Assembly (NCBI RefSeq): GCF_024213665.1
Contig: NZ_JANAVP010000004.1
Span: 1 to 64,000, forward strand
From: Streptomyces sp. A3M-1-3
Lineage (GTDB): Bacteria; Actinomycetota; Actinomycetes; Streptomycetales; Streptomycetaceae
Length of the DNA: 64,000 bases
Direction of reading: 5' to 3'
This document shows, piece by piece, positions 262-10,333 of this stretch. Each line of letters begins with the position of its first letter. The first letter of the stretch is position 1. The notes below the pieces were generated by a model, which was given only the letters and a program-made list of their open reading frames with translations, was not told where the DNA came from and made no database searches. Made by a program: the position numbers and the translations under genes.

Positions 262-1095
262 TCAGCGCGGACGGCGCCGGAGCAGCAGGGCCGCGCCCAC
301 CGCGGCGCCGGCGAGGACCGCCGCACCGCCGGCGAGCAGGGGCACGAGGACGCGCGGCGAACCGGCGGCGGCCGCCGACACGGTGGTACGGGGCACGCTC
401 GCCGGCGGCGACGGAGGCGTCGGCGCGTCAGGGACCGCGTTGGCGACACCGTTCGCGCCACCACCGGGGAAGACCACGTCGGAGCACGAGTAGTAGGTGT
501 CCGGGGTGTCCGTGTTCCGCCACACGGTGTACAGCACATGGCGGCCCGTCAGCCCGGTCGGGAGGGTGCCGCTGATCCGGTACGCACCGCCCGCGAGCTC
601 CGGATCGGTGACGGTGGCGAACGGCTCCGCCGCCAGGTCCGCCCACCGCAGCGGTACGGCAGGATCGTGGCCCTCCTCGGTGAGGTAGAGACTAAACGTC
701 CCCCGGTGCGGGATGGTCGACCGGTACGTGAGCGTGAACCGGGCCCCGGCCGTCAGCTCGGTCGCGGGCCAGTCGGCCCGCGCGAGGTCCAGCCCCCGGT
801 AGGCGTCGATGCCCGCACTGCACAGCTTCCCGTCGGGCACGACCTCGCGGTCGCGGCCCCCGACACCGGCGACCCGCAGGTTGTCCCACGCGTCGAACGC
901 CCGCCCCCCGTTCGCGGCAACGGCCGCGCGACAGGCCGGCGCCCCCTGCTGCTCCCCCTCGGGACCGCACGCGGCGACCCGGCTGACGGGATCGGTGGGC
1001 GCCCCGTGCGCGTACGCGGGCCCGGCCGCCAGGGCCGTGAGCAGAAGCGGTGCGACACCGGCGAGCGCGGCGGTGGCAGTGCGGTGGGCGGTCAT
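262..1095 (-). CDS. AA10 lytic polysaccharide monooxygenase, membrane-anchored
   Basis: Predicted 277-residue secreted copper enzyme that oxidatively cleaves chitin or cellulose. Residues 1-29 form a Sec signal ending AYA, so the mature protein begins at His30, as the family requires: the N-terminal His amine forms half of the copper histidine brace. His130 (IPHRG) is the likely second copper ligand. The catalytic domain spans about residues 30-210 and is followed by a Pro/Ser/Ala linker. A hydrophobic segment (about 250-272) ends in RRRPR, which suggests the enzyme stays tethered to the membrane instead of being released, and no carbohydrate-binding module is present. No other polysaccharide genes are adjacent. 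The family call is strong; the substrate is unknown. Confidence 0.9.
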   Translation of the reverse strand: MTAHRTATAALAGVAPLLLTALAAGPAYAHGAPTDPVSRVAACGPEGEQQGAPACRAAVAANGGRAFDAWDNLRVAGVGGRDREVVPDGKLCSAGIDAYRGLDLARADWPATELTAGARFTLTYRSTIPHRGTFSLYLTEEGHDPAVPLRWADLAAEPFATVTDPELAGGAYRISGTLPTGLTGRHVLYTVWRNTDTPDTYYSCSDVVFPGGGANGVANAVPDAPTPPSPPASVPRTTVSAAAAGSPRVLVPLLAGGAAVLAGAAVGAALLLRRRPR

Positions 1096-1461: not shown

Positions 1462-2811
1462 CTAACCGTCCGTCGAACTGGCGGACAGGGTTGGTGAATT
1501 CGCAGGGCGTTCGCAGAACCGGCGCTTGTAGGGAACGCGCAGCAGTGCGGCATAGAGGACACCGAAAGCTGTCCACGCCAGATAGAGGCCCGGAAGGCCG
1601 AGCCCGGCGTGGACACCGAGGAGCCAGCCGAGCGGGACGAGCAGCGTGTAGTCGCTGGTCACGGAGGCGATCATGACGGTCTTGGTGTCACCGGCAGCGC
1701 GTAGCAAAGCAGCGTGGGACATGGCGAGCGCCAAGGGGGCCATGCTGAGCAGCGCCAGCGGTGTTGCGGTCCAGGCGTGATTCACGACTTCGGAATCGGT
1801 GGTGACCTGGGAGAGCAGTGGTCGGCCGAGGGCGAGCGCGGCAGCGGATGGCAGGGCGAGCATGAGGAGGAGCAGCTTGGCTCCGGTCCGTTGCCAGGCG
1901 GCGGCGCGTTCGTGGTGGCCGCTGCCGAGTTCCTGGCCGGCCAGGATGGTGATCGCCGTGGAGGCCGAGGCGAGGAAGGTGAAGATGACGAGGGTCAGGT
2001 TGTCCACGATGCGGTAGGCGGCCAGGTCGTGGGTGCTCATGCGGGCGGCGAAACCTGCCATCAGGGCTTCGTTGACATAGCCGATGCCCAGGGTGCTCAT
2101 CTCGGGCCAGCCGATGCGCCACAGTTCCCTGGTGCTGGGGTGTGCGTTGTCCAGGTCTTCGGTGCGCCGCGGCAGCCGGTTGCGGCTGTACAGGAGCAGG
2201 TAGCCGGTTCCGGTGGCGGTGGCGGCGAGGGTAGCGAGGGCGGCGCCGGTGACGCCGAGGCCGGCGTGGAAGATGAGGAGCAGGCCGAGGGGAAGGTTGA
2301 CCAGGTTGACGAGTAGCGCGGTGTACATCGAGACGCGTGTGGCGCCGATGCCGGCGCAGGCGGCCTGGAGCGTGAAGGAGACGGCGGCGAACGGCACGGC
2401 GATCGCCATCAGTCGCAGGTAGGTGCTGCCGGGCCCGAGGACGTCATCGGGTGCGCCCAGCACGGTCAGGGCGAGGGGGGCGACGGCGTACAGGACAGCG
2501 CCGAGGGCTGCGCCAACCCCGATGGAGGTGACGATCCCGGCGCGCACGACCTGGGCGACCTCGCCGGGCCGTCCTGCGCCATGGCTCCTGGCGACCAGGA
2601 CCTGAACGGCGGTGGCCCAGCCGCGAACGACGATCAGGGCGATGAGGTACACGGGGGCGGCGAGGGCGAAGGCCCCCAGAGCACGGGTGGACAGCCGGGC
2701 GAGCATGACCGTGTCGACGATGTTGAGGGTGATCTGGGTCAGCCCGGCGATGAGCAGCGGATAGGCCAGGGTCCATGCGCGGCGCACGGTGGGGCGTTCG
2801 GGGTCGTTCAC
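1462..2811 (-). CDS. MATE family efflux transporter
   Basis: A 449-residue membrane protein with about 12 hydrophobic segments and the MatE architecture of two six-helix bundles: the N-terminal bundle opens near LAYPLLIAGLTQITLN, and the second starts around residue 230 near WRIGWPEMSTLGIGY. MATE proteins export cationic or hydrophobic small molecules using Na+ or H+ gradients. Its start overlaps the stop of the luciferase-like oxidoreductase by 4 bases, so the two are translationally coupled. It is last in the YcaO locus, and I infer that it exports the mature peptide product, providing secretion and self-protection. The family is certain; the substrate is inferred from context. Confidence 0.93.
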   Translation of the reverse strand: MNDPERPTVRRAWTLAYPLLIAGLTQITLNIVDTVMLARLSTRALGAFALAAPVYLIALIVVRGWATAVQVLVARSHGAGRPGEVAQVVRAGIVTSIGVGAALGAVLYAVAPLALTVLGAPDDVLGPGSTYLRLMAIAVPFAAVSFTLQAACAGIGATRVSMYTALLVNLVNLPLGLLLIFHAGLGVTGAALATLAATATGTGYLLLYSRNRLPRRTEDLDNAHPSTRELWRIGWPEMSTLGIGYVNEALMAGFAARMSTHDLAAYRIVDNLTLVIFTFLASASTAITILAGQELGSGHHERAAAWQRTGAKLLLLMLALPSAAALALGRPLLSQVTTDSEVVNHAWTATPLALLSMAPLALAMSHAALLRAAGDTKTVMIASVTSDYTLLVPLGWLLGVHAGLGLPGLYLAWTAFGVLYAALLRVPYKRRFCERPANSPTLSASSTDG

Positions 2812-3830
2812 AGTGCGGCCTGGGCGGCTTCCAGCAGTTCGACGTCGCGGTCGAGGAGGATCAGGGTGTCCACGCGTGAGTCCTTCCAGGCCAGGATCCG
2901 ATCGATGATGGCCGGGAGGGGGCCTGGCAGCGCGAATTGGTCGAGCAGCGTGTCGGGGACCGCGGCGATGGCGTCGGGCTTGTGACCATCGGTGAGGTGC
3001 TTGCGGATGGTGTGCGCCGGGCCTTCGTATCCCACCCGGCAGGCCACATCGAAGTAGGTGTTGCGTCCGCCTGGTCCCACTGCGCCGAACAGGTGCGCGA
3101 ACAGGGGGCGCAGTTTGTCGCGCCCCTGTTCGACGGTTTCGGCGCGGGCCACGTACAGGATGGGACAGATCTTGATGTCGGCGGGGGTGCGGCCCGCGAG
3201 GGCGAGGCCCTCGTCCAGGGGGCGGGTCAGTGCGGCTTCATGTTCGGGGGCGTACATGCCTGCCAGCCAGCCGTCGGCGATCTGTCCGGTCAGCCCGACG
3301 TTCCGAGGGCCGATCGCGCCGAGGTAGAGGGGGATGTCGGGGCGCAGGGGTTTCATGTCGGACCTCACCGGGCGGGCGCTGCCGCTGGAACCTGGTCCGC
3401 GGTAGGGGAGCTGGTAGATCTCGCCGTCGTGTTCGACACGCTCTGTGTGGGTGACGGCTTTGCGGACGATCTCGACGTACTCGCGAGTGCGCCGGAGCGG
3501 TTTGGCGTAGGGCTGGCCGTGCCAGCCTTCGACGATCCACGGGACGGACAGGCCCAGGCCGAGCTGGAATCGTCCGCCGGAGAGCATGTCCAGTGTCATG
3601 GCGGTCATCGCGGTGGCGGCGGGGGTGCGTGCCGGGATTTGCATGATGGCGGTGCCGAGCTTGATGCGGCTGGTGGTGGCGGCCAGGTAGCCGAGGATGC
3701 TCACGGCGTCGGGGCCGTACTCTTCCACGCTCCATACGGAGTCGACACCGATCTGTTCGGCTCGCTGGACTGTGGGGAGGAGTTCTTCGATGGGTTCTCC
3801 GCCGTAGCCCAGGGCCAGCCCGAGACGCAT
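2808..3830 (-). CDS. LLM-class F420-dependent oxidoreductase (Rv3520c-like)
   Basis: A 340-residue luciferase-like TIM-barrel flavin/F420 oxidoreductase. The start is the ATG giving MRLGLALGYGGEPI, the normal beta-1 strand of the fold; the frame stays open far upstream but that part is antisense noise. Recognisable family segments are SVWSVEEYG, KLGTAIMQIPARTPAATAMT, DMLSGGRFQLGLGLS and LYLGAIGPRNVGLTGQIADG, matching the probable F420-dependent Rv3520c subfamily. It lies 53 bases after the YcaO gene and overlaps the MATE gene. In this setting I infer that it oxidises a YcaO-installed heterocycle (azoline to azole) or another backbone position, in place of the FMN dehydrogenase usual in azole-peptide clusters. 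The oxidoreductase family is secure; the substrate is inferred. Confidence 0.92.
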   Translation of the reverse strand: MRLGLALGYGGEPIEELLPTVQRAEQIGVDSVWSVEEYGPDAVSILGYLAATTSRIKLGTAIMQIPARTPAATAMTAMTLDMLSGGRFQLGLGLSVPWIVEGWHGQPYAKPLRRTREYVEIVRKAVTHTERVEHDGEIYQLPYRGPGSSGSARPVRSDMKPLRPDIPLYLGAIGPRNVGLTGQIADGWLAGMYAPEHEAALTRPLDEGLALAGRTPADIKICPILYVARAETVEQGRDKLRPLFAHLFGAVGPGGRNTYFDVACRVGYEGPAHTIRKHLTDGHKPDAIAAVPDTLLDQFALPGPLPAIIDRILAWKDSRVDTLILLDRDVELLEAAQAAL

Positions 3831-3883
3831 GTAGTGGCTCCTTGTCGTAGTGCCGAAGCGTGTGTGGGTGAGGATCGGTCGCG

Positions 3884-5350
3884 TCAGGAGAACGGCAGGG
3901 GGTCGTGGACGAGTCCGGTCGCGGTGGGCGGTCGGGGAACCCAGCCGCGGGCGACGGGTTCGCGGTAGAGGCGCACACCGCCGAGGAAGGAAAAGGCGGC
4001 CGGGGCGTTGCAGGACAGGCCGGGCACCATGACGCGCGCGACATGCAGTCCTGCGGCTCGCACCTCCGGGGTCGTCAAGTCGACCGTGATGGCCCGCAGC
4101 CCCTGCGCGGCGAGCACTTGGAGGTAGTCGTCCAGTCCGGTTGCGAGGCGGCCGCTGTCCTGCGACTGGTGCCCCCGATGCGGGCTTCGGGGGGTGCGGA
4201 GCCGGTCCAGCCGGGTGTCCTGCATGCGTGGGTCGAGGTAGACCTGAAGGTGCAGGCGTACGTCGTTGACGTCGCGCCAGTCGGGTCGGAAGTCTTCCCG
4301 GTAGGCACGGTCTTCCCGGTGGGGCCGGTAGGGACGGTGGTCGATGCGGCCGGCGCGGACGGCGCTCCAGAAACCGCTGTCGTGGTCCAGCAGTTCCAGG
4401 CCGGTTTCGTGCATGCCGATGGCCTCGGTGAATGCCTTGACCGCGGACGCCTCGGGAGTGGAGCGGCAGGCGCTGCCGAACGCGACCAGGTGCCGCTCCA
4501 GGTCCTCGATGAACACACCGGCGACGGTGATGTCGAACGTGGACGGGATCCGCAGGAAAGTCACGCGGAGGCCGGAGGCGGTGGCCTCGCCCAGCGCGGT
4601 GGCGAGCGGCCCGCTCAGCTCCAGGGGCAGGAGGCCGGCGGGGGCGCCGCTGAGCCACCACAGGGTGACTGCGTCCCGTTCCAGCACCTCCCGCAGTGCG
4701 GCGAGTTGCGCTTGCTCCTGGCTCGTGCCGGCTGCTGTACCGGCCAGAACCGGGTAGTTGGTGGGTGGTTCGGCACGGCGCGCGCCGCGGAAGTAGTTGA
4801 CGTACGTCAGCGACGCGGGAACAAGGATCTCGTTGTCGTCGCGGAGGTCGCGACCGGTCGCCCAGGAGATCGGCAGGTCAGGGGTCATCGCAACGAACGG
4901 GAAGCCGCGTTGGGCGTACTGGGCAGATGAGTACAGGGCGAACTCTCGGGGATCGACACCCGTGTGGCCTGCCCGGGACAGCTGGGCGTAGGACGCGGTC
5001 GGCAGTGTGTCGGGGACGACGTTTCCGCAGTAACGTTCGACCGCCTCACCGATGGCCGCGCGGCGTGCCTGCTCGTGGTCGCCGAGCGCGGCGCCGCCGG
5101 TGACGGTGTCGACCGCGGCCGGGGCGAGCTCGGCGTGCGTCGACAGGTGGGCACTGTAGGAAATACAGCTCGGCACTGTTTCCACGCGTGGAAGGTCCTG
5201 GACGACCCGTCGGATCAGACGGAGTCCGGTGTCCCCAAGACGGCGGGCGCCATTGTCTGCGCCGGCGGCCCCGCGTTCCACCGGTGTTGTTCGGCCGGAT
5301 GGTGCCACAGGTAACTCCACACTCCTCGGTCCGTGGAACGGAACGGGCAC
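3884..5350 (-). CDS. YcaO-domain cyclodehydratase, RiPP maturation
   Basis: YcaO enzyme (up to 488 residues) that uses ATP to activate peptide backbone amides, giving azolines, thioamides or amidines. Visible ATP/Mg elements are GEAVERYCG (about 101-109, the ExxxER signature) and LREVLERDAVTLWW (about 219-232). The C-terminus is Pro-rich and ends PLPFS, resembling the PxPxP end needed by azoline-forming YcaOs. There is no fused or adjacent ThiF/Ocin-ThiF (E1-like) partner and no TfuA, so it appears to be a stand-alone YcaO. Two starts are plausible: GTG at 5350, without a ribosome site but including a rare TTA (bldA) codon at 5312-5314, or GTG at 5308 preceded by GGAG at 6 bases. It lies just downstream of a candidate precursor gene and hairpin. 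Confidence 0.92.
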   Translation of the reverse strand: MPVPFHGPRSVELPVAPSGRTTPVERGAAGADNGARRLGDTGLRLIRRVVQDLPRVETVPSCISYSAHLSTHAELAPAAVDTVTGGAALGDHEQARRAAIGEAVERYCGNVVPDTLPTASYAQLSRAGHTGVDPREFALYSSAQYAQRGFPFVAMTPDLPISWATGRDLRDDNEILVPASLTYVNYFRGARRAEPPTNYPVLAGTAAGTSQEQAQLAALREVLERDAVTLWWLSGAPAGLLPLELSGPLATALGEATASGLRVTFLRIPSTFDITVAGVFIEDLERHLVAFGSACRSTPEASAVKAFTEAIGMHETGLELLDHDSGFWSAVRAGRIDHRPYRPHREDRAYREDFRPDWRDVNDVRLHLQVYLDPRMQDTRLDRLRTPRSPHRGHQSQDSGRLATGLDDYLQVLAAQGLRAITVDLTTPEVRAAGLHVARVMVPGLSCNAPAAFSFLGGVRLYREPVARGWVPRPPTATGLVHDPLPFS

Positions 5351-5380
5351 TCACTGGGCTGTCATTGGCTCACGACGTAC

Positions 5381-5412
5381 GGCGGGAGGCGACGAAGCCG
5401 CCACCTCCCGCC
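5381..5412 (-). terminator. hairpin between candidate precursor and YcaO genes
   Basis: Perfect 9-bp stem GGCGGGAGG (5381-5389) with CCTCCCGCC (5404-5412) and a 14-base loop, starting 7 bases after the stop of the small peptide gene. No T-run follows. In RiPP clusters a partial terminator here commonly raises precursor expression relative to the enzymes; that role is inferred. Confidence 0.55.
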
Positions 5413-5419
5413 GCCCGGT

Positions 5420-5545
5420 TCAGCTCGCGGTCTGCTCGTCCTCGACGTCCTCACGCCACTCGAACGGTGCGTCGACCGCCGGCGTGTGGGACTTCAGGCA
5501 GCCCGACTGCGGCTCTTCGGGTTCCTGCCAGCCTGCGTGTGCCAT
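5420..5545 (-). CDS. candidate RiPP precursor peptide (41 aa)
   Basis: ATG frame of 41 codons with an excellent ribosome site, AAGGAGGA, 5 bases upstream. The peptide has one Cys (16) in the stretch SGCLKSHT, Ser at 14, 19 and 41, Thr at 21 and 39, Trp at 6 and 30, and a strongly acidic tail (six Asp/Glu between residues 29 and 37). Size, the Cys/Ser/Thr-containing middle and the acidic flank fit a leader/core or core/follower precursor. It directly precedes the YcaO gene with a hairpin between. I recognise no known RiPP class in the sequence: no bottromycin-type GPVVVFDC core, no thiopeptide Ser/Cys-rich core, no APR repeats. Which residues are core is unknown. Alternatively it is an unrelated small protein. 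Confidence 0.62.
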   Translation of the reverse strand: MAHAGWQEPEEPQSGCLKSHTPAVDAPFEWREDVEDEQTAS

Positions 5546-5622
5546 GTGCGTCCTCCTTGAGATCGGCACAGGAGGCACCTTGTTGCACATCCTGTGCAGT
5601 TACAAGTGCTGGGCATGAAGGC

Positions 5623-5826: not shown

Positions 5827-6675
5827 TCACGGAGTCTGGTTGGCGTGTTTTCCTCCGTTCAGTCGCTCGTTGCTCGCCCACTCGAGGCCGGGAAGAACGG
5901 TGACTTGCGGGATCCCGGTGCGGGGGTGTTCGGTCACCTCCGCCTTGACGCGGTAGATGTCGGCCAGCAGCGCCGGTGTGAGGACCTCCCCGGGTGCTCC
6001 GGTGGCCACCATCCGGCCGCCGTCCATCACGCAGATCCGGTCGCAGAAGGATGCGGCCAGGTTGAGGTCGTGCAGTGCGATGACGGAGGTGGCGCCGAGT
6101 CTGCGGACGAGCCGGAGCGCGTCGAGTTGATGGCGCAGGTCCAGGTGGTTGGTGGGCTCGTCCAGGACCATGGTTCCGGTGCCCTGCGCGAGCGCGCGGG
6201 CGATCAGTACCCGCTGCTTCTCCCCGCCCGAGAGCCGGTCGAAGGGCGCGTGTGCCAGGGCGGCGACATCAAGTTCGTCCAGCGAGCCCAGGATGATGTC
6301 GCGGTCGTCGGCATCGTCGCCTGCGAAGGCCCGCTTGTGCGGGGTGCGGCCCATGGCCACCACGTCGTACACGGTGAGCTCGAAGTCCCCGGCAGTTTCC
6401 TGCAGCACGGCCGCAAGCCGCTGCGCCAGGCGCTTGCCGGGCATCCGCCATACGTCGTCGCCGTCCAGGAGTATCCGCCCCGACGTGGGGCGCACCGCTC
6501 GGTAGATCGTGCGCAGCAGGGTGGACTTGCCTGCGCCGTTGGGGCCGACGAGGCCCACCACCTCACCGGGTTTCACCTGCAAGGAGACCTGGTTCACCAA
6601 CGGCCGGCCGTTCACGACGACGGATACGGCTTCGGCTTCGAGGGCGCCGGGTTCAGGTATCGGCCTGTCCGTCAT
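5827..6675 (-). CDS. siderophore-type ABC importer, ATP-binding protein
   Basis: A 282-residue FecE/FepC-class ATPase. Walker A is GPNGAGKST, the signature is LSGGEKQR, and Walker B is TMVLDEPTNHLD followed by the H-loop VIALHDLNLAASF. The start is the ATG giving MTDRPIPEPG, overlapping the permease stop by 4 bases. It powers uptake through the permease encoded immediately upstream. As the last gene of the importer operon, its stop lies about 280 bases before the candidate precursor gene. Known members take up ferric siderophores, haem or cobalamin; the ligand here is not evident. Confidence 0.93.
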   Translation of the reverse strand: MTDRPIPEPGALEAEAVSVVVNGRPLVNQVSLQVKPGEVVGLVGPNGAGKSTLLRTIYRAVRPTSGRILLDGDDVWRMPGKRLAQRLAAVLQETAGDFELTVYDVVAMGRTPHKRAFAGDDADDRDIILGSLDELDVAALAHAPFDRLSGGEKQRVLIARALAQGTGTMVLDEPTNHLDLRHQLDALRLVRRLGATSVIALHDLNLAASFCDRICVMDGGRMVATGAPGEVLTPALLADIYRVKAEVTEHPRTGIPQVTVLPGLEWASNERLNGGKHANQTP

Positions 6676-7775
6676 CGCGTCGCCTTCCGCCGCATGAGCC
6701 AGAGGAAGAACGGGCCACCGACCAGGGCGGTGAGGATGCCGACGGGTATCTCCTCCGGGCTCATGAGCGTGCGCGCGGCCAGGTCGGCGGCGATCAGGAA
6801 GGCTGCACCGAGAAGCGCGGCGGCGGGCAGCGCACGGCGGTGATCGGCGCCCACCAGCAGCCGCACCACGTGCGGCATGATCAGGCCGACGAAGCCGATC
6901 TGGCCACTGACCGCGACGATGGTGCCGATCATCAGGGCGACCAGCGTGAACAGGGCACCGCGGAAGCGGTGTACGTCCAGGCCGAGGGCCGCGGCCGCTT
7001 CCTCCCCGGCCAGCAGCAGGTTGAGCGGACGGCAGACGCCCAGCAGGATCGCCGTACCGAGCAGCACGGCGCCTACGGGGATCCATACCGTCGTCCAGGT
7101 GGTGCCGGCCAGTCCGCCGAGCATCCACCGCAGTGCCGACTGCGTCTTCTGGGGGTCGTTGGAGGTGACGACCAGGAAGCTGGCCACTGCCGAGAGGACT
7201 TCGGCCATGGCCACGCCCGCCAGCACCAGCCGTACCGTGGTCATCCGCCCGCCGGACCGAGCCAGGAAGTAGACCGCGAGCAGGGCGGCCAGTGCCCCGC
7301 AGAATGCCGCCGCGGGCAGGGAGAACATGCCGAACAGCGTCACGTTGAGGACCAGGACGAGCACCGCTCCGACCGACGCGCCCGACGACACCCCGAGCAG
7401 CATCGGATCGGCCAACGGGTTGCGGACCAGGGCCTGCAGCGCCATCCCCGACACCGACAGACCGGCGCCCACCACTCCGGCCAGCAGTACTCGGGGCAGC
7501 CGCACGTCGATGACGATCGTCTCCCGGACCGGTGTCCAGGTCGGCTCGGCGAGTGCCGGATGCATCCGGTGCAGCAGAATGCTCCAGACCTGGTCGGCCG
7601 GGACGCTGATCGAACCGACCGCGATCCCGGCCGTCGCCGTACCCGCCACGAGGAGGCCCAGGAAGGCGAGCACCATCGTGTAGGGGATCCCCGGCCGGCG
7701 GGCGGTGGCTTCCCCGGCTCCTGTTCGTGTGCTGACGGCGCCGGCTGCCCCGGGTGCTTGCTTCACATCGGTCAC
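6672..7775 (-). CDS. FecCD-family iron/metallophore ABC permease
   Basis: A 367-residue permease with about ten hydrophobic segments. The N-terminal region precedes the conserved IVIDVRLPRVLLAGVVGAGL segment, followed by MALQALVRNPLADPMLLGVS and SGASVGAVL, all hallmarks of BtuC/FecCD. The cytoplasmic coupling region and ISGQIGFVG-like segment (here VSGQIGFVGLIMPHVVR) are intact. Only one permease gene is present, so the transporter is probably a homodimer. Four-base overlaps with the binding protein gene upstream and the ATPase gene downstream mark a tight operon. Confidence 0.93.
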   Translation of the reverse strand: MTDVKQAPGAAGAVSTRTGAGEATARRPGIPYTMVLAFLGLLVAGTATAGIAVGSISVPADQVWSILLHRMHPALAEPTWTPVRETIVIDVRLPRVLLAGVVGAGLSVSGMALQALVRNPLADPMLLGVSSGASVGAVLVLVLNVTLFGMFSLPAAAFCGALAALLAVYFLARSGGRMTTVRLVLAGVAMAEVLSAVASFLVVTSNDPQKTQSALRWMLGGLAGTTWTTVWIPVGAVLLGTAILLGVCRPLNLLLAGEEAAAALGLDVHRFRGALFTLVALMIGTIVAVSGQIGFVGLIMPHVVRLLVGADHRRALPAAALLGAAFLIAADLAARTLMSPEEIPVGILTALVGGPFFLWLMRRKATR

Positions 7776-8758
7776 TGGAAGCGGTCCGGGTGGATCTGAC
7801 GGGCCAGCGACTCGACGGCCGACGGCACCCGGACGCCGAGCACGGTGGACGACAGTGGCAGCACCGCGAACCGCTTGTTCTTGATCGCGGGCACGTCCTT
7901 CAGCGCCGGGTTGGCGAGCAGGAACTTCTTCTTGTCCTCGACGGGCTGGTCGCCGTAGTCGTAGATGACTATGACGTCGGGAGCGCGTTCGGCCACCTGC
8001 TCGAACGACACATCGCCGAAGGCCTTGTTCACGTCGGCGAAGAGGTTCACCCCGCCGGCGCGCTTGATCATCTCGTTGCCGATGCCCTTGCCGCCGGCGG
8101 TGAAGGCGGTTTTGTCTCCGCTGTCATAGACGAAGAGCTTGGTCGGAGCGATACCGGCGAGCTTGTCCTCGACTCGCTCAAGGGTGCCGTGCAGTTTGTT
8201 CACCTGCTGTTCGGCCCGCTCCGGTACGCCGAAGATCTTCGCGACGGTGCGGATCTCCTCGTCCATCTTGGCCATCGTCACGGGCCCCGTGGAACATTCC
8301 TCGATGTTGAGGTGGGTGTTGATCCCGGCCTTGGTGAATGCGGGGCGGCTGCGTCCCTCCTTCTCGTCGAAGGTGGTGGCGAAGCCGCCGTAGATGAAGT
8401 CCGGTTCGGCGGCCAGCAGCGTCTCGAAGGACGGGTACTCCTTGGACAGCACCTTGATGCTGCCGTAGGCGGCCTGATACTCCGGCAGGATCTTGTCGTC
8501 GAGATAGCCCGTGCCCACCATCGACTTCTCCAGCCCCAGCGCGAGCATGACCTCACTCGCATGCTGGTTGAGCGACACCGCCCGCTGCGGAGGACGCTGA
8601 TAGGTGGTCTTCACGCCGCAGTTGGACACCGTGACCGGAAAGCCCTTGGCAACGGAGCCCGCCGAGTCGGCGTCGTTCCGGGCGCTGCCGCCACAGCCGG
8701 ATATCAGCAGAGTCGACGCCATGGCCAGCAGCAGGGACAACGAGCGTTTACCCATCAT
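7772..8758 (-). CDS. metallophore/iron-binding lipoprotein of the ABC importer
   Basis: A 328-residue class III periplasmic-type binding protein. A signal peptide ends in the lipobox LISGC, so Cys is lipidated and the protein sits on the outer face of the membrane. Typical segments are QRAVSLNQHASEVMLALGL, the hinge helix, and FGDVSFEQVAERAPDVIV near the C-lobe. It delivers ligand to the FecCD permease encoded next. GAGAGGA lies upstream as the ribosome site. The nearest gene beyond is 800 bases away, so this is the first gene of the importer. I see no convincing iron-regulator box in the upstream 300 bases. Ligand is unknown; a product of the adjacent YcaO locus is one possibility. Confidence 0.92.
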   Translation of the reverse strand: MMGKRSLSLLLAMASTLLISGCGGSARNDADSAGSVAKGFPVTVSNCGVKTTYQRPPQRAVSLNQHASEVMLALGLEKSMVGTGYLDDKILPEYQAAYGSIKVLSKEYPSFETLLAAEPDFIYGGFATTFDEKEGRSRPAFTKAGINTHLNIEECSTGPVTMAKMDEEIRTVAKIFGVPERAEQQVNKLHGTLERVEDKLAGIAPTKLFVYDSGDKTAFTAGGKGIGNEMIKRAGGVNLFADVNKAFGDVSFEQVAERAPDVIVIYDYGDQPVEDKKKFLLANPALKDVPAIKNKRFAVLPLSSTVLGVRVPSAVESLARQIHPDRFQ

Positions 8759-9575
8759 CTGGTGGGTCCTCTCACAGCATGGTGGATCGGATGGTCATCG
8801 CGTGTCGCGAAACGGCCCGGAACGGGCGCGCGCCGCATGGAGTGGAGACGTCGGGCGGAAGCGATCAGGCCGGCGGCTTGGCCCGCCGAGCCCTGGCTCA
8901 ACGCCGGATCGCCTGGTTGGCCGCTTGCTTCATGAACTGCCCAACCCCCTTCTCCCGAGGGAATCCGGCCAGCATCTCGGTTCACCCACCCCGCACTGCT
9001 GCACGTTATTGGCAAGTACCAAACAACTGCAATACGCCAATGTCTGGAGGGGAGGGCTCACAGGTGCACGCCAGGTCGCGCTCGGGGCGACGCGCCCCGG
9101 GACGTGACCGACGTAGCGCCCGCAGCCGTCTGCGGCTTGGTGAGAAGGAAACGGACGAGGCGGCCGACCAACCCGGCCGAGATGGTCCTGCACATGCCGG
9201 CCGTTCCCCTGGACGATGCCCGCGAGGCCGCCCGGCGCCCCCTGCCTGACCAGGCCCGACCGAGGCGCATCAGCCCGCTACACCGTTCGAGTGGACCTCG
9301 CGCGGACGCTGGACGCGTCTGCGACTGTCCGAGGACAATGCGATCGGCCGCCAGGATGCCCGGTTCCACTACCCGGGGAACGCAAGCCAACGCTACGGGC
9401 CTGTCCCCCATCGGCTTTCGCGCCTTCATGGCCATGAATGGTCGTGACTGAACCTCCGTCAACAGGCAGCCATCGGCTGAAACGCGTCATGGTCGGGCGC
9501 GGACGTCGCGCTGCTGCACTTCCTTGATAACCGTGGCCACAGTGGCGAAGTCGTTGTGATGTACCCAAGGGTGGG
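8759..9575. other. no recognisable gene; accessory spacer
   Basis: About 800 bases without a frame I can recognise. Open frames on both strands look like GC-skew shadows or scraps, for example one ending HGHEWS near 9449 and, on the minus strand, one ending FMKQAANQAIRR near 8888. A small palindrome TTGGCAAGTACCAA is at 9009-9022. The stretch may hold decayed genes between the importer and the vapBC module. Confidence 0.5.
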
Positions 9576-9584
9576 GTGGTGAGC

Positions 9585-9815
9585 ATGTCCGTTCCCCAGA
9601 TCGACCTTGATGACGAGACGCTGGCCGAGTCGATGCGCCTGATGGGCGTGACGACGAAGAAGGAGACCGTCAACGCGTCTCTGCGGGATTATGTGGCTCG
9701 TATCAGGAGGCTTGAGGCTGCCGAGAAGCTGGCCGAGCGGGGCGAGCGCGGCGAGTTCGAGGAGGCCGCAGCCGCGTACGACGCTGCTGAGCGCGCACGG
9801 CGGGGCTTTGGGTGA
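9585..9815 (+). CDS. vapB: VapB-family antitoxin
   Basis: A 76-residue antitoxin of the DUF2191/VapB type. The N-terminal strand QIDLDDETL and the helix MGVTTKKETVNASL make the ribbon-helix-helix DNA-binding unit, and the acidic, Ala-rich C-terminus is the toxin-wrapping part. Start: ATG at 9585 is favoured; GTG at 9576 is in frame. The gene overlaps the following vapC by 4 bases (GTGA). The antitoxin looks intact although its toxin is damaged, so it may persist as an orphan regulator. Confidence 0.85.
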   Translation: MSVPQIDLDDETLAESMRLMGVTTKKETVNASLRDYVARIRRLEAAEKLAERGERGEFEEAAAAYDAAERARRGFG

Positions 9816-10279
9816 TCACCTATCTTGTTGACACCTCTGCGCTGTGGCACCTGTTCCGCACCCCTGGGGCGCTGCATCCCTCGGACGGGCACATCGCCGC
9901 CGGCATGTTCCGTATCTGCGAGCCGACGCGTACCGAGTTTCTGTGCTCGGCCACCAGCCCGTCTCACCGCGACGAGTTGGCGGGGGGCTGGATGCTCTTT
10001 GCCAGCTCTCGCCGGTCCCGAAGAACGCGTGCCTCTGGAGCCATCGATCTCCTGGTATGCGCGACAGCGGTCCATCACGGCGACACCGTGCTCCACCGTC
10101 GCGGGAGTCTCGGTGAAGAGGGGTCGGCGCGAAGCCGGATGGGCGAGCTCGCCCAAGGCTCGCAGCCCTGTTTCCACCGCATGCGACGACCAACCCTGAT
10201 CACCCCAGTAGGTCACGCGCGCCCCCATCGGGCATCCACTACATTTCGGACGCGCGGCGTCCACTGTGCGTCCACTTGA
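9812..10279 (+). pseudogene. vapC: vapC PIN-domain toxin, degraded
   Basis: The first 60 residues are a normal PIN toxin (MITYLVDTSALWHLF with catalytic Asp7; TRTEFL with the acidic residue near 41). After SHRDELAGG the reading shifts: the expected continuation LDALCQLSPVPKNA is in another frame (around 9980-10025). Then GAIDLLVCATAVHHGDTVLH returns in the first frame, with the segment normally between missing. The final DxD/N segment and C-terminus are replaced by unrelated sequence after about 10098. The nuclease is therefore almost certainly dead through a frameshift, an internal deletion and a lost 3-prime end. Confidence 0.8.
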
Positions 10280-10296
10280 TCTTGGTTCGGGGCTAC

Positions 10297-10333
10297 AGTG
10301 AGGGCCCTCGGGGATTCCCCGAGGGCCCTCACT
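10297..10333. terminator. strong 17-bp terminator hairpin
   Basis: A perfect 17-bp stem AGTGAGGGCCCTCGGGG (10297-10313) and its complement (10317-10333) around an ATT loop. It lies between the vapBC remnant and the minus-strand tRNA genes and can act in both directions. Confidence 0.8.

What the first reader, a model, noticed from the sequence alone, without database searches (positions are those of the whole stretch)
1462..5545. Candidate undescribed RiPP cluster: small peptide, stand-alone YcaO, F420/LLM oxidoreductase, MATE exporter
Seen: four minus-strand genes in the order 41-aa peptide, hairpin, YcaO, luciferase-like oxidoreductase, MATE, with a 4-base overlap between the last two. Known: YcaO enzymes modify ribosomal peptide backbones, and azoline-forming ones usually work with an Ocin-ThiF/E1 partner and an FMN dehydrogenase. 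Neither is here, nor is TfuA. Inference: an LLM/F420-type enzyme may replace the dehydrogenase, giving a minimal and possibly new RiPP class.
Basis: partly seen in the sequence, partly recalled or inferred. Interest (0 to 1): 0.88.

Follow-up and report, generated by a model that had tools for sequence, protein, structure and literature searches.

The report
Nickel-starvation ribosomal metallophore gene cluster
A gene set shared by Streptomyces and related bacteria encodes a tiny peptide, two enzymes predicted to modify it, an exporter and an importer, and the DNA in front of the peptide gene matches the binding pattern of a nickel-sensing repressor, so it would likely make a secreted, gene-encoded peptide that collects nickel or cobalt.

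Summary
In detail: peptide, hairpin, YcaO, LLM oxidoreductase and MATE are there. The peptide is a real gene, invariant at HTPAVD..F.W in 22 intact copies. The RiPP reading stands, but the cluster is neither isolated nor minimal. Its YcaO forms a supported clade related to streptamidine-type YcaOs, and its peptide resembles their precursors. The LLM gene is in 23 of 23 clade loci and 0 of 31 other YcaO loci; AmiC and AmiE relatives are absent. Upstream, the cassette continues into an SBP-FecCD-ABC importer. The decisive evidence is regulatory. Tandem copies of the published Nur (nickel repressor) box lie before the peptide in 21 of 22 loci, the window included. The same pattern marks sodF and a CbiM-like transporter gene in this genome. 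In 13 of 16 group-I loci a cobalamin riboswitch heads the operon, together with a FhuF-type gene; the window, one of the 16, lacks both. I propose a nickel/cobalt-starvation RiPP metallophore, exported by MATE and re-imported by the Btu-like importer. Peptide chemistry and metal binding are inferred. Confidence about 0.6.

The parts
7772..8758 (-). substrate-binding lipoprotein (Peripla_BP_2), first gene of the importer
   Evidence: PF01497 107.3 bits; below-cutoff NCBIfam hits to F420-0, EitA and BtuF models; BtuF among PDB hits; 20 of 20 homologous loci outside the cassette that were scanned (of 29 fetched) have a cobalamin riboswitch
6672..7775 (-). FecCD/BtuC-type permease
   Evidence: PF01032 316.1 bits; BtuC model 275.5 bits, below its cutoff; 75-86% identity in 10 other group-I loci
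5827..6675 (-). importer ATPase
   Evidence: PF00005 109.3 bits; corrinoid ATPase model 268.9 bits, below its cutoff
8999..9015 (-). weak Nur-like dyad TTGCCAATAACGTGCAG (9 of 12) upstream of the importer; tentative
   Evidence: placed by reading; L066, which also lacks the riboswitch, has two 9-of-12 dyads upstream of its importer
5583..5616 (-). tandem Nur-like operator ATGCCCAGCACTTGTAA + CTGCACAGGATGTGCAA (8 and 9 of 12), 37 nt before the peptide ATG
   Evidence: tandem: none of 1000 Markov sequences as good; single best box p = 0.078
5420..5545 (-). precursor peptide, 41 aa
5483..5500 (-). predicted core CLKSHT (position by analogy with HLSATH of streptamidine; inferred)
   Evidence: alignment by eye with PMC8442711
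5456..5482 (-). predicted follower PAVDAPFEW, set against ALVxNPF(x)W of streptamidine-type precursors (inferred)
   Evidence: by eye
5381..5412 (-). hairpin between peptide and YcaO (14 bp)
3884..5350 (-). YcaO (SagD-type), no fused E1/RRE domain; C-terminus DPLPFS
   Evidence: PF02624; TIGR03604 282.3 bits, above cutoff; LynD, MusD, TruD nearest solved relatives; model pLDDT 86.9; Foldseek LynD, MusD
2808..3830 (-). LLM oxidoreductase, probably F420-dependent
   Evidence: PF00296; TIGR03559 F420_Rv3520c 334.7 bits against a cutoff of 335; nearest solved: methylenetetrahydromethanopterin reductases, three of the seven rows named F420-dependent
1462..2811 (-). MATE exporter
   Evidence: TIGR00797 218.7 bits, above cutoff; weak hits to SolL, WgkD, MbnM

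Best explanation
This is a conserved RiPP cassette in which a 41-aa precursor is likely cyclised by a YcaO ATPase, probably tailored by a predicted F420-dependent LLM enzyme, predicted to be exported by a MATE pump and re-imported, metal-loaded, by the adjacent Btu/Fec-type ABC importer, so that it would act as a nickel/cobalt metallophore made when nickel runs short. Shown: the genes, their conserved association, the YcaO clade, the published Nur-box pattern in tandem upstream of the peptide, and (in relatives) a cobalamin riboswitch and a FhuF-type [2Fe-2S] protein gene in the operon. Inferred: that Nur binds these sites; that the precursor is processed to a short core around CLKSHT carrying a YcaO-made backbone ring (an amidine as in streptamidine, or an oxazoline); that the product binds Ni(II)/Co(II); that MATE exports and the importer retrieves it; and that the FhuF-like protein of relatives releases the metal by reduction. 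The window strain's cassette has neither the FhuF-like gene nor the riboswitch, so it would rely on nickel control alone and on another release route.
For: Co-conservation: LLM in 23 of 23 clade loci and 0 of 31 group-III loci; intact peptide in 22 of 23; MATE hit in 16 of 16 group-I loci (168 aa only in L078), 0 of 7 group-II loci (most of which have ABC exporters) and 1 of 31 group-III loci. Clade support 100/99 (group I) and 99/98 (I+II). Nur box: best dyad at least 9 of 12 in 21 of 22 and at least 10 of 12 in 15 of 22 peptide upstreams, against 6.6% and 0.67% in Markov sequences; 0 hits of 10 or more in 31 group-III loci. Tandem form p <= 0.001 in 21 of 22. Consensus tTGCaa-N5-ttGCAA in print: PMC3919588, passage; Nur with Ni(II) represses sodF and nikABCDE: PMC7055735, passage. 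In this genome the only exact match fronts sodF and the only one-mismatch match precedes a CbiM-like gene. Cobalamin riboswitch on the operon strand at its head in 13 of 16 group-I loci; FhuF-like gene in the same 13 (FhuF_C 40.2 bits, tested on one) and in 0 of 29 importer places without the cassette (34 stretches). Neighbours among the 23 loci include SodF (6), MetE (2) and NrdA with NrdB (3). In 5 of 7 group-II loci peptide, YcaO, LLM, SBP, FecCD and ABC genes run in one direction behind the Nur-like boxes.
Against: No chemistry was tested. Streptamidine, the nearest characterised relative, showed no binding of Fe, Co, Cu, Mg, Mn, Ni or Zn and its mutant no phenotype under metal starvation (PMC8442711). 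The window has no riboswitch and no FhuF-like gene, and its single best box is weak (9 of 12, p = 0.078). L071 has no box at the peptide (its box is at the riboswitch). At the riboswitch heads only 3 of the 10 loci printed have a strong box, 1 a 9-of-12 and 6 no better than 7. The 17-nt tandem spacing was chosen after seeing the data. The importer family is widespread without the cassette and looks corrinoid-linked, so it need not carry the peptide. In L081 and L083 of group II no FecCD hit was found (L083 lies on a short contig).
Confidence: 0.6

Rival explanations
1. Corrinoid or cobalt scavenger: the peptide would capture cobalamin-type compounds or Co(II), and nickel control is secondary.
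For: Importer homologues outside the cassette carry a cobalamin riboswitch in 20 of 20 loci scanned (20 of the 29 fetched); 13 of 16 group-I operons are headed by one; MetE and NrdAB neighbours; BtuC and corrinoid-ATPase model hits, below cutoff.
Against: The region just before the peptide carries Nur-like boxes in 21 of 22 loci; group II has no riboswitch on the operon strand (0 of 7); the window and L066 have none.
Confidence: 0.2
2. An orphan streptamidine-like RiPP (signal or antibiotic) that is merely switched on under metal limitation, with no metal-carrying role.
For: YcaO and precursor kinship; streptamidine bound no metal in published tests.
Against: The near-invariant product region across genera is unlike what one expects of diversifying antibiotics (inference); 0 of 31 group-III loci have a strong box and 0 of the 13 scanned have the riboswitch; linkage to importer and FhuF-type genes.
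Confidence: 0.15
3. An intracellular peptide-derived cofactor or nickel chaperone (for example for NiSOD), the MATE serving another solute.
For: Strong conservation of the short peptide; nickel-type control sites.
Against: Exporter genes accompany both groups, MATE or ABC. NiSOD genes were not searched for at the loci.
Confidence: 0.05

Closest known systems
Streptamidine (ami) RiPP family, PMC8442711
   Same: YcaO within one larger branch of the tree; precursor with a similar conserved tail after the core; Fec-type importer genes; core not rich in Ser/Thr/Cys. The window's own genome holds a streptamidine locus (L120).
   Different: PAVD in place of the ALV motif; core CLKSHT-like in place of HLSATH (inferred); no AmiB in the window, no AmiC hydrolase or AmiE dehydrogenase in the 23 loci; LLM and MATE instead; Nur-like boxes and (in relatives) a cobalamin riboswitch, not found in the group-III loci scanned.
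Cyanobactin heterocyclases LynD/TruD and MusD
   Same: Closest solved YcaOs by sequence and fold; a relative of the window enzyme has the full RRE-E1-YcaO layout.
   Different: Window YcaO lacks the RRE and E1 parts; the peptides have no strictly conserved Cys, Ser or Thr.
Methanobactin (copper RiPP metallophore; recalled)
   Same: Logic: ribosomal peptide, MATE exporter (weak MbnM hit), dedicated uptake.
   Different: Different enzymes (MNIO there, YcaO/LLM here) and a different predicted metal.
Staphylopine-type nickel/cobalt metallophores (recalled)
   Same: Predicted Ni/Co metal and export-import cycle.
   Different: Those are opine-like, not ribosomal.

Membership tests
Streptamidine family | YcaO of the AmiD clade | tested here: inconclusive
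   the streptamidine rows and groups I+II share a 98/93 branch with other rows, but I+II is its own clade (99/98)
Streptamidine family | precursor with motif A or B (shared ALV) | tested here: not met
   PAVD in place of ALV in all 22 intact peptides; the paper's 22 motif-less sequences could not be checked (supplements not readable)
Streptamidine family | AmiB-like RRE/E1 protein | tested here: not met
   no AmiB hit in the window stretch; fused E1-like part in some relatives
Streptamidine family | AmiC hydrolase and AmiE dehydrogenase | tested here: not met
   0 of 23 group I/II loci at E <= 1e-4
Streptamidine family | FecBCDE-like importer | tested here: met
   7772-8758, 6672-7775, 5827-6675; one permease gene, not two
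Azole/azoline RiPP (LAP/TOMM) | SagD-type YcaO with E1/Ocin-ThiF partner and FMN dehydrogenase | tested here: not met
   YcaO passes TIGR03604; no partner or dehydrogenase in the window cassette
Thioamide RiPP | TfuA partner | tested here: not met
   no TfuA hit among the 8 proteins scanned
Nur regulon | tTGCaa-N5-ttGCAA near the promoter | tested here: met
   21 of 22 loci, tandem; window 8 and 9 of 12, a weak member
Nur regulon | Nur binding and Ni-dependent repression | not testable with these tools
   needs gel shift and transcript data
Cobalamin riboswitch regulon | RF00174 at operon head | tested here: not met
   absent from the window though present in 13 of 16 group-I loci
Metallophore | secreted product that binds the metal | not testable with these tools
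   no product known

The most novel reading that the evidence does not exclude
A ribosomally encoded nickelophore: a new RiPP class (HTPAVD peptides, YcaO + F420-LLM, RRE/E1 lost in this branch) switched on by nickel shortage through Nur and, in relatives, also by B12 shortage through a cobalamin riboswitch, with export, re-import and reductive metal release encoded together.
Probability: 0.45. Interest if true: 0.93.

Novelty: new variant of a known kind. Interest (0 to 1): 0.84.

Why it matters
If true, a gene-encoded peptide does for nickel or cobalt what methanobactin does for copper, made with different chemistry. It would give one branch of the streptamidine-like clusters a function and a reason for its Fec/Btu importer, and it tells experimenters which growth condition (nickel, perhaps cobalt or B12, limitation) to use to see the product.

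Tried and rejected
Iron siderophore: suggested by the FhuF-type gene and Fec importer. A scan for the DmdR/IdeR iron box (consensus recalled) gave no match of 13 of 19 or better in the window and one in the 16 group-I loci (L076, inside the locus), against 6 in shuffled copies of these loci; two group-II loci and one group-III locus had one each. Azole formation at a fixed residue: Ser is Ala in 6 of 7 group-II peptides, Cys is absent in 9 of 15 group-I peptides, Thr is Met in P0135. Peptide hit in G363 (L005, L110): no YcaO beside it, taken as chance. A degenerate riboswitch in the window: permissive scan of 8400-10300 found none. Nur-box hits with two mismatches in the own genome are at chance level: 14 forward matches in all against 18 for the reversed control pattern, so only the 0- and 1-mismatch sites were used.

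Controls on the dyad: 36 hits of 10 or more in the 23 group I/II loci against 1 in shuffles (my notebook says 34, a miscount). Of 250 called genes in these loci 31 have an upstream dyad of 9 or more, many of them cassette or sodF genes but also a few others; of 122 called genes in 12 group-III loci 1 has. Of 29 importer loci without the cassette 1 has one anywhere in the stretch.

Family scans of nine homologous YcaOs named the RRE/E1 part in only two (TIGR03882: P0056 just above, P0051 below cutoff), so the E1-like reading of the other extensions rests on the alignment and the model of P0107.

Literature: searches, seen as listings. 'cobalamin riboswitch' with 'YcaO' gave 0 papers; cobalophore-type terms gave 0; 'RiPP siderophore/metallophore' type terms gave 15, none opened; one search listed 6 of 7 papers, of which only the streptamidine paper was opened; one search gave 1,641 papers, 12 listed, one of them with the word 'nickelophore', none opened. 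PMC8442711: passages and parts 1-3 of 5 of the text. PMC3919588 and PMC7055735: passages only. No supplement could be read.
Full report
What is there. The four minus-strand genes exist as described. They accompany the cassette in most close relatives: SBP, FecCD and ABC all at about 65% identity or more in 11 of 16 group-I loci (the window included), SBP alone in L074.

The peptide is a real gene. A search of 392 Streptomyces genomes gave 5 with a peptide match, one of them taken as chance. A YcaO search of 392 gave 9 at E <= 1e-60; 4 of these are close orthologues (57-100%) and each has the peptide. A class-wide search of 394 genomes gave 17, all but the own one at 36-45% identity and without peptide or LLM. 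In 341 genomes of another actinobacterial family (the one that holds the Actinomadura and Streptosporangium loci), 23 had a YcaO at E <= 1e-95 in 24 places. By context and tree these 24 are 12 group I, 7 group II and 5 group III. In all, 16 group-I, 7 group-II and 31 group-III loci were studied; 17 of the group-III loci have an ALV-type, streptamidine-like precursor, the rest are other YcaO loci. The peptide is intact in 22 of the 23 group I/II loci; in L082 only a C-terminal remnant is left (read by eye). Twelve columns are invariant in these 22: M1 A2 H3 E8 H20 T21 P22 A23 V24 D25 F28 W30. A profile search of 5.8 billion proteins gave 29 members at E <= 0.01, among them P0135 with Met for Thr and P0145/P0146 with a Cys after the His.

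Kinship. The maximum-likelihood tree of 76 YcaO domains puts group I on one branch (100/99) and groups I+II on one branch (99/98). Next to them lie YcaOs whose precursors carry ..NALVHNPF.. or the like (81/99, not starred); the streptamidine AmiD rows join in a larger 98/93 branch. Streptamidine-type precursors from the fetched loci read ..THALVQNPFAWDEE and ..HLSATHSNALVENPFDDGEE. By eye these align with ..KSHTPAVDAPFEWRED. In streptamidine the core HLSATH directly precedes this region (PMC8442711), so the core here is predicted to be around CLKSHT. The window's own genome also carries a streptamidine locus (L120).

Loss of the partner domains. P0107, a group-II relative, models as a chain of RRE, E1 and YcaO parts (pLDDT 84.0) and matches LynD, TruD and MusD over 698-814 columns. 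Group I includes YcaOs with an extension that aligns with the E1-like part (L071, L074, L076, L077) and YcaOs alone (the window and others). The window YcaO therefore likely lost these parts; how it recognises its peptide is open. AmiC and AmiE relatives are absent from all 23 loci, so leader removal has no obvious enzyme; the PDB title of MusD (7u58) records YcaO-mediated peptidase activity, a lead only.

Regulation by nickel. Fur-family Nur of Streptomyces represses sodF and a nickel transporter when Ni is present (PMC7055735 passage) and its proposed box is tTGCaa-N5-ttGCAA (PMC3919588 passage). In the 300 nt before the peptide the best dyad scores 9 of 12 or more in 21 of 22 loci and 10 or more in 15 of 22, against 6.6% and 0.67% of Markov sequences; the 31 group-III loci, scanned over up to 13 kb each, have no hit of 10 or more. 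The boxes come in tandem with 17-nt period (p <= 0.001 in 21 of 22, the window included; spacing chosen after seeing the data). The window pair scores 8 and 9, and its second box is identical in L067. The exception L071 has an 11-of-12 box at the start of its riboswitch, as L070 and L072 do; of 10 riboswitch heads printed, 3 have such a box, L069 has a 9-of-12 farther up, and 6 have none better than 7. In the own genome the only exact match ends 28 nt before the sodF start and the only one-mismatch match precedes a CbiM-like gene (NCBIfam CbiM 164.4 bits, below its cutoff).

B12 link. Cobalamin riboswitches stand at the head of the operon, on its strand, in 13 of 16 group-I loci; they are missing in the window and L066, and L075 has only one on the other strand, facing NrdA. 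None of the 13 group-III loci scanned has one; of 7 group-II loci one has one, on the other strand. The same 13 group-I loci carry a FhuF-type gene (Pfam FhuF_C tested on one); no group-II or group-III locus does. In three of them (L069, L071, L076) no close importer relative lies nearby and the riboswitch heads FhuF-peptide-YcaO-LLM-MATE, with a ferredoxin-like gene first in L069. Importer homologues away from the cassette have a riboswitch in 20 of 20 scanned loci; none of the 29 such places has a FhuF hit (most stretches are only about 4 kb) and 28 of 29 have no dyad of 9 or more. So the importer is of a B12/cobalt-linked kind and the peptide adds nickel-type control. The own genome has 6 cobalamin riboswitches, none in the window.

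Mechanism. Committed reading: Ni (or Co) shortage lifts Nur; precursor, YcaO, LLM and MATE are made; the modified peptide leaves, binds the metal through its conserved His and ring nitrogens, and returns through the Btu-like importer. In relatives a FhuF-type reductase would release the metal, which suits Co(III) or other tight complexes. Everything from Nur binding onward is inferred. The strongest contrary fact is that streptamidine bound no metal in published tests; its loci, however, lack the regulatory marks found here.

Noticed in passing
window 262-1095: AA10-type lytic polysaccharide monooxygenase (LPMO_10, 180.3 bits) downstream of the MATE gene; no relative of it was hit in the other loci searched.
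   Followed up: no
L120 (own genome, contig C17): The same genome carries a streptamidine locus (precursor ..HLSATHSNALVENPFDDGEE), so both RiPPs could be compared in one strain.
   Followed up: partly
L082, about 100 nt before YcaO: Peptide gene eroded to a C-terminal remnant while FhuF, YcaO, LLM and MATE remain: possibly a strain that no longer makes the product but keeps the rest.
   Followed up: no
P0145, P0146: Divergent peptides with HCTPAVD; the His-Cys pair recalls the nickel hook of NiSOD (recalled, untested).
   Followed up: no
L070, L071, L072, operon heads: An 11-of-12 Nur-like box starts 7-9 nt before the cobalamin riboswitch match and overlaps its first bases: apparent dual Ni and B12 control of one operon.
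   Followed up: partly
L067, -6080 to -5301 from YcaO: sodF lies beside the cassette, with an Rfam sodF sRNA match directly after it on the same strand; sodF is a neighbour in 6 of 23 loci.
   Followed up: partly
window 9560-9900: Small genes that read like a toxin-antitoxin pair upstream of the importer (my reading, untested).
   Followed up: no
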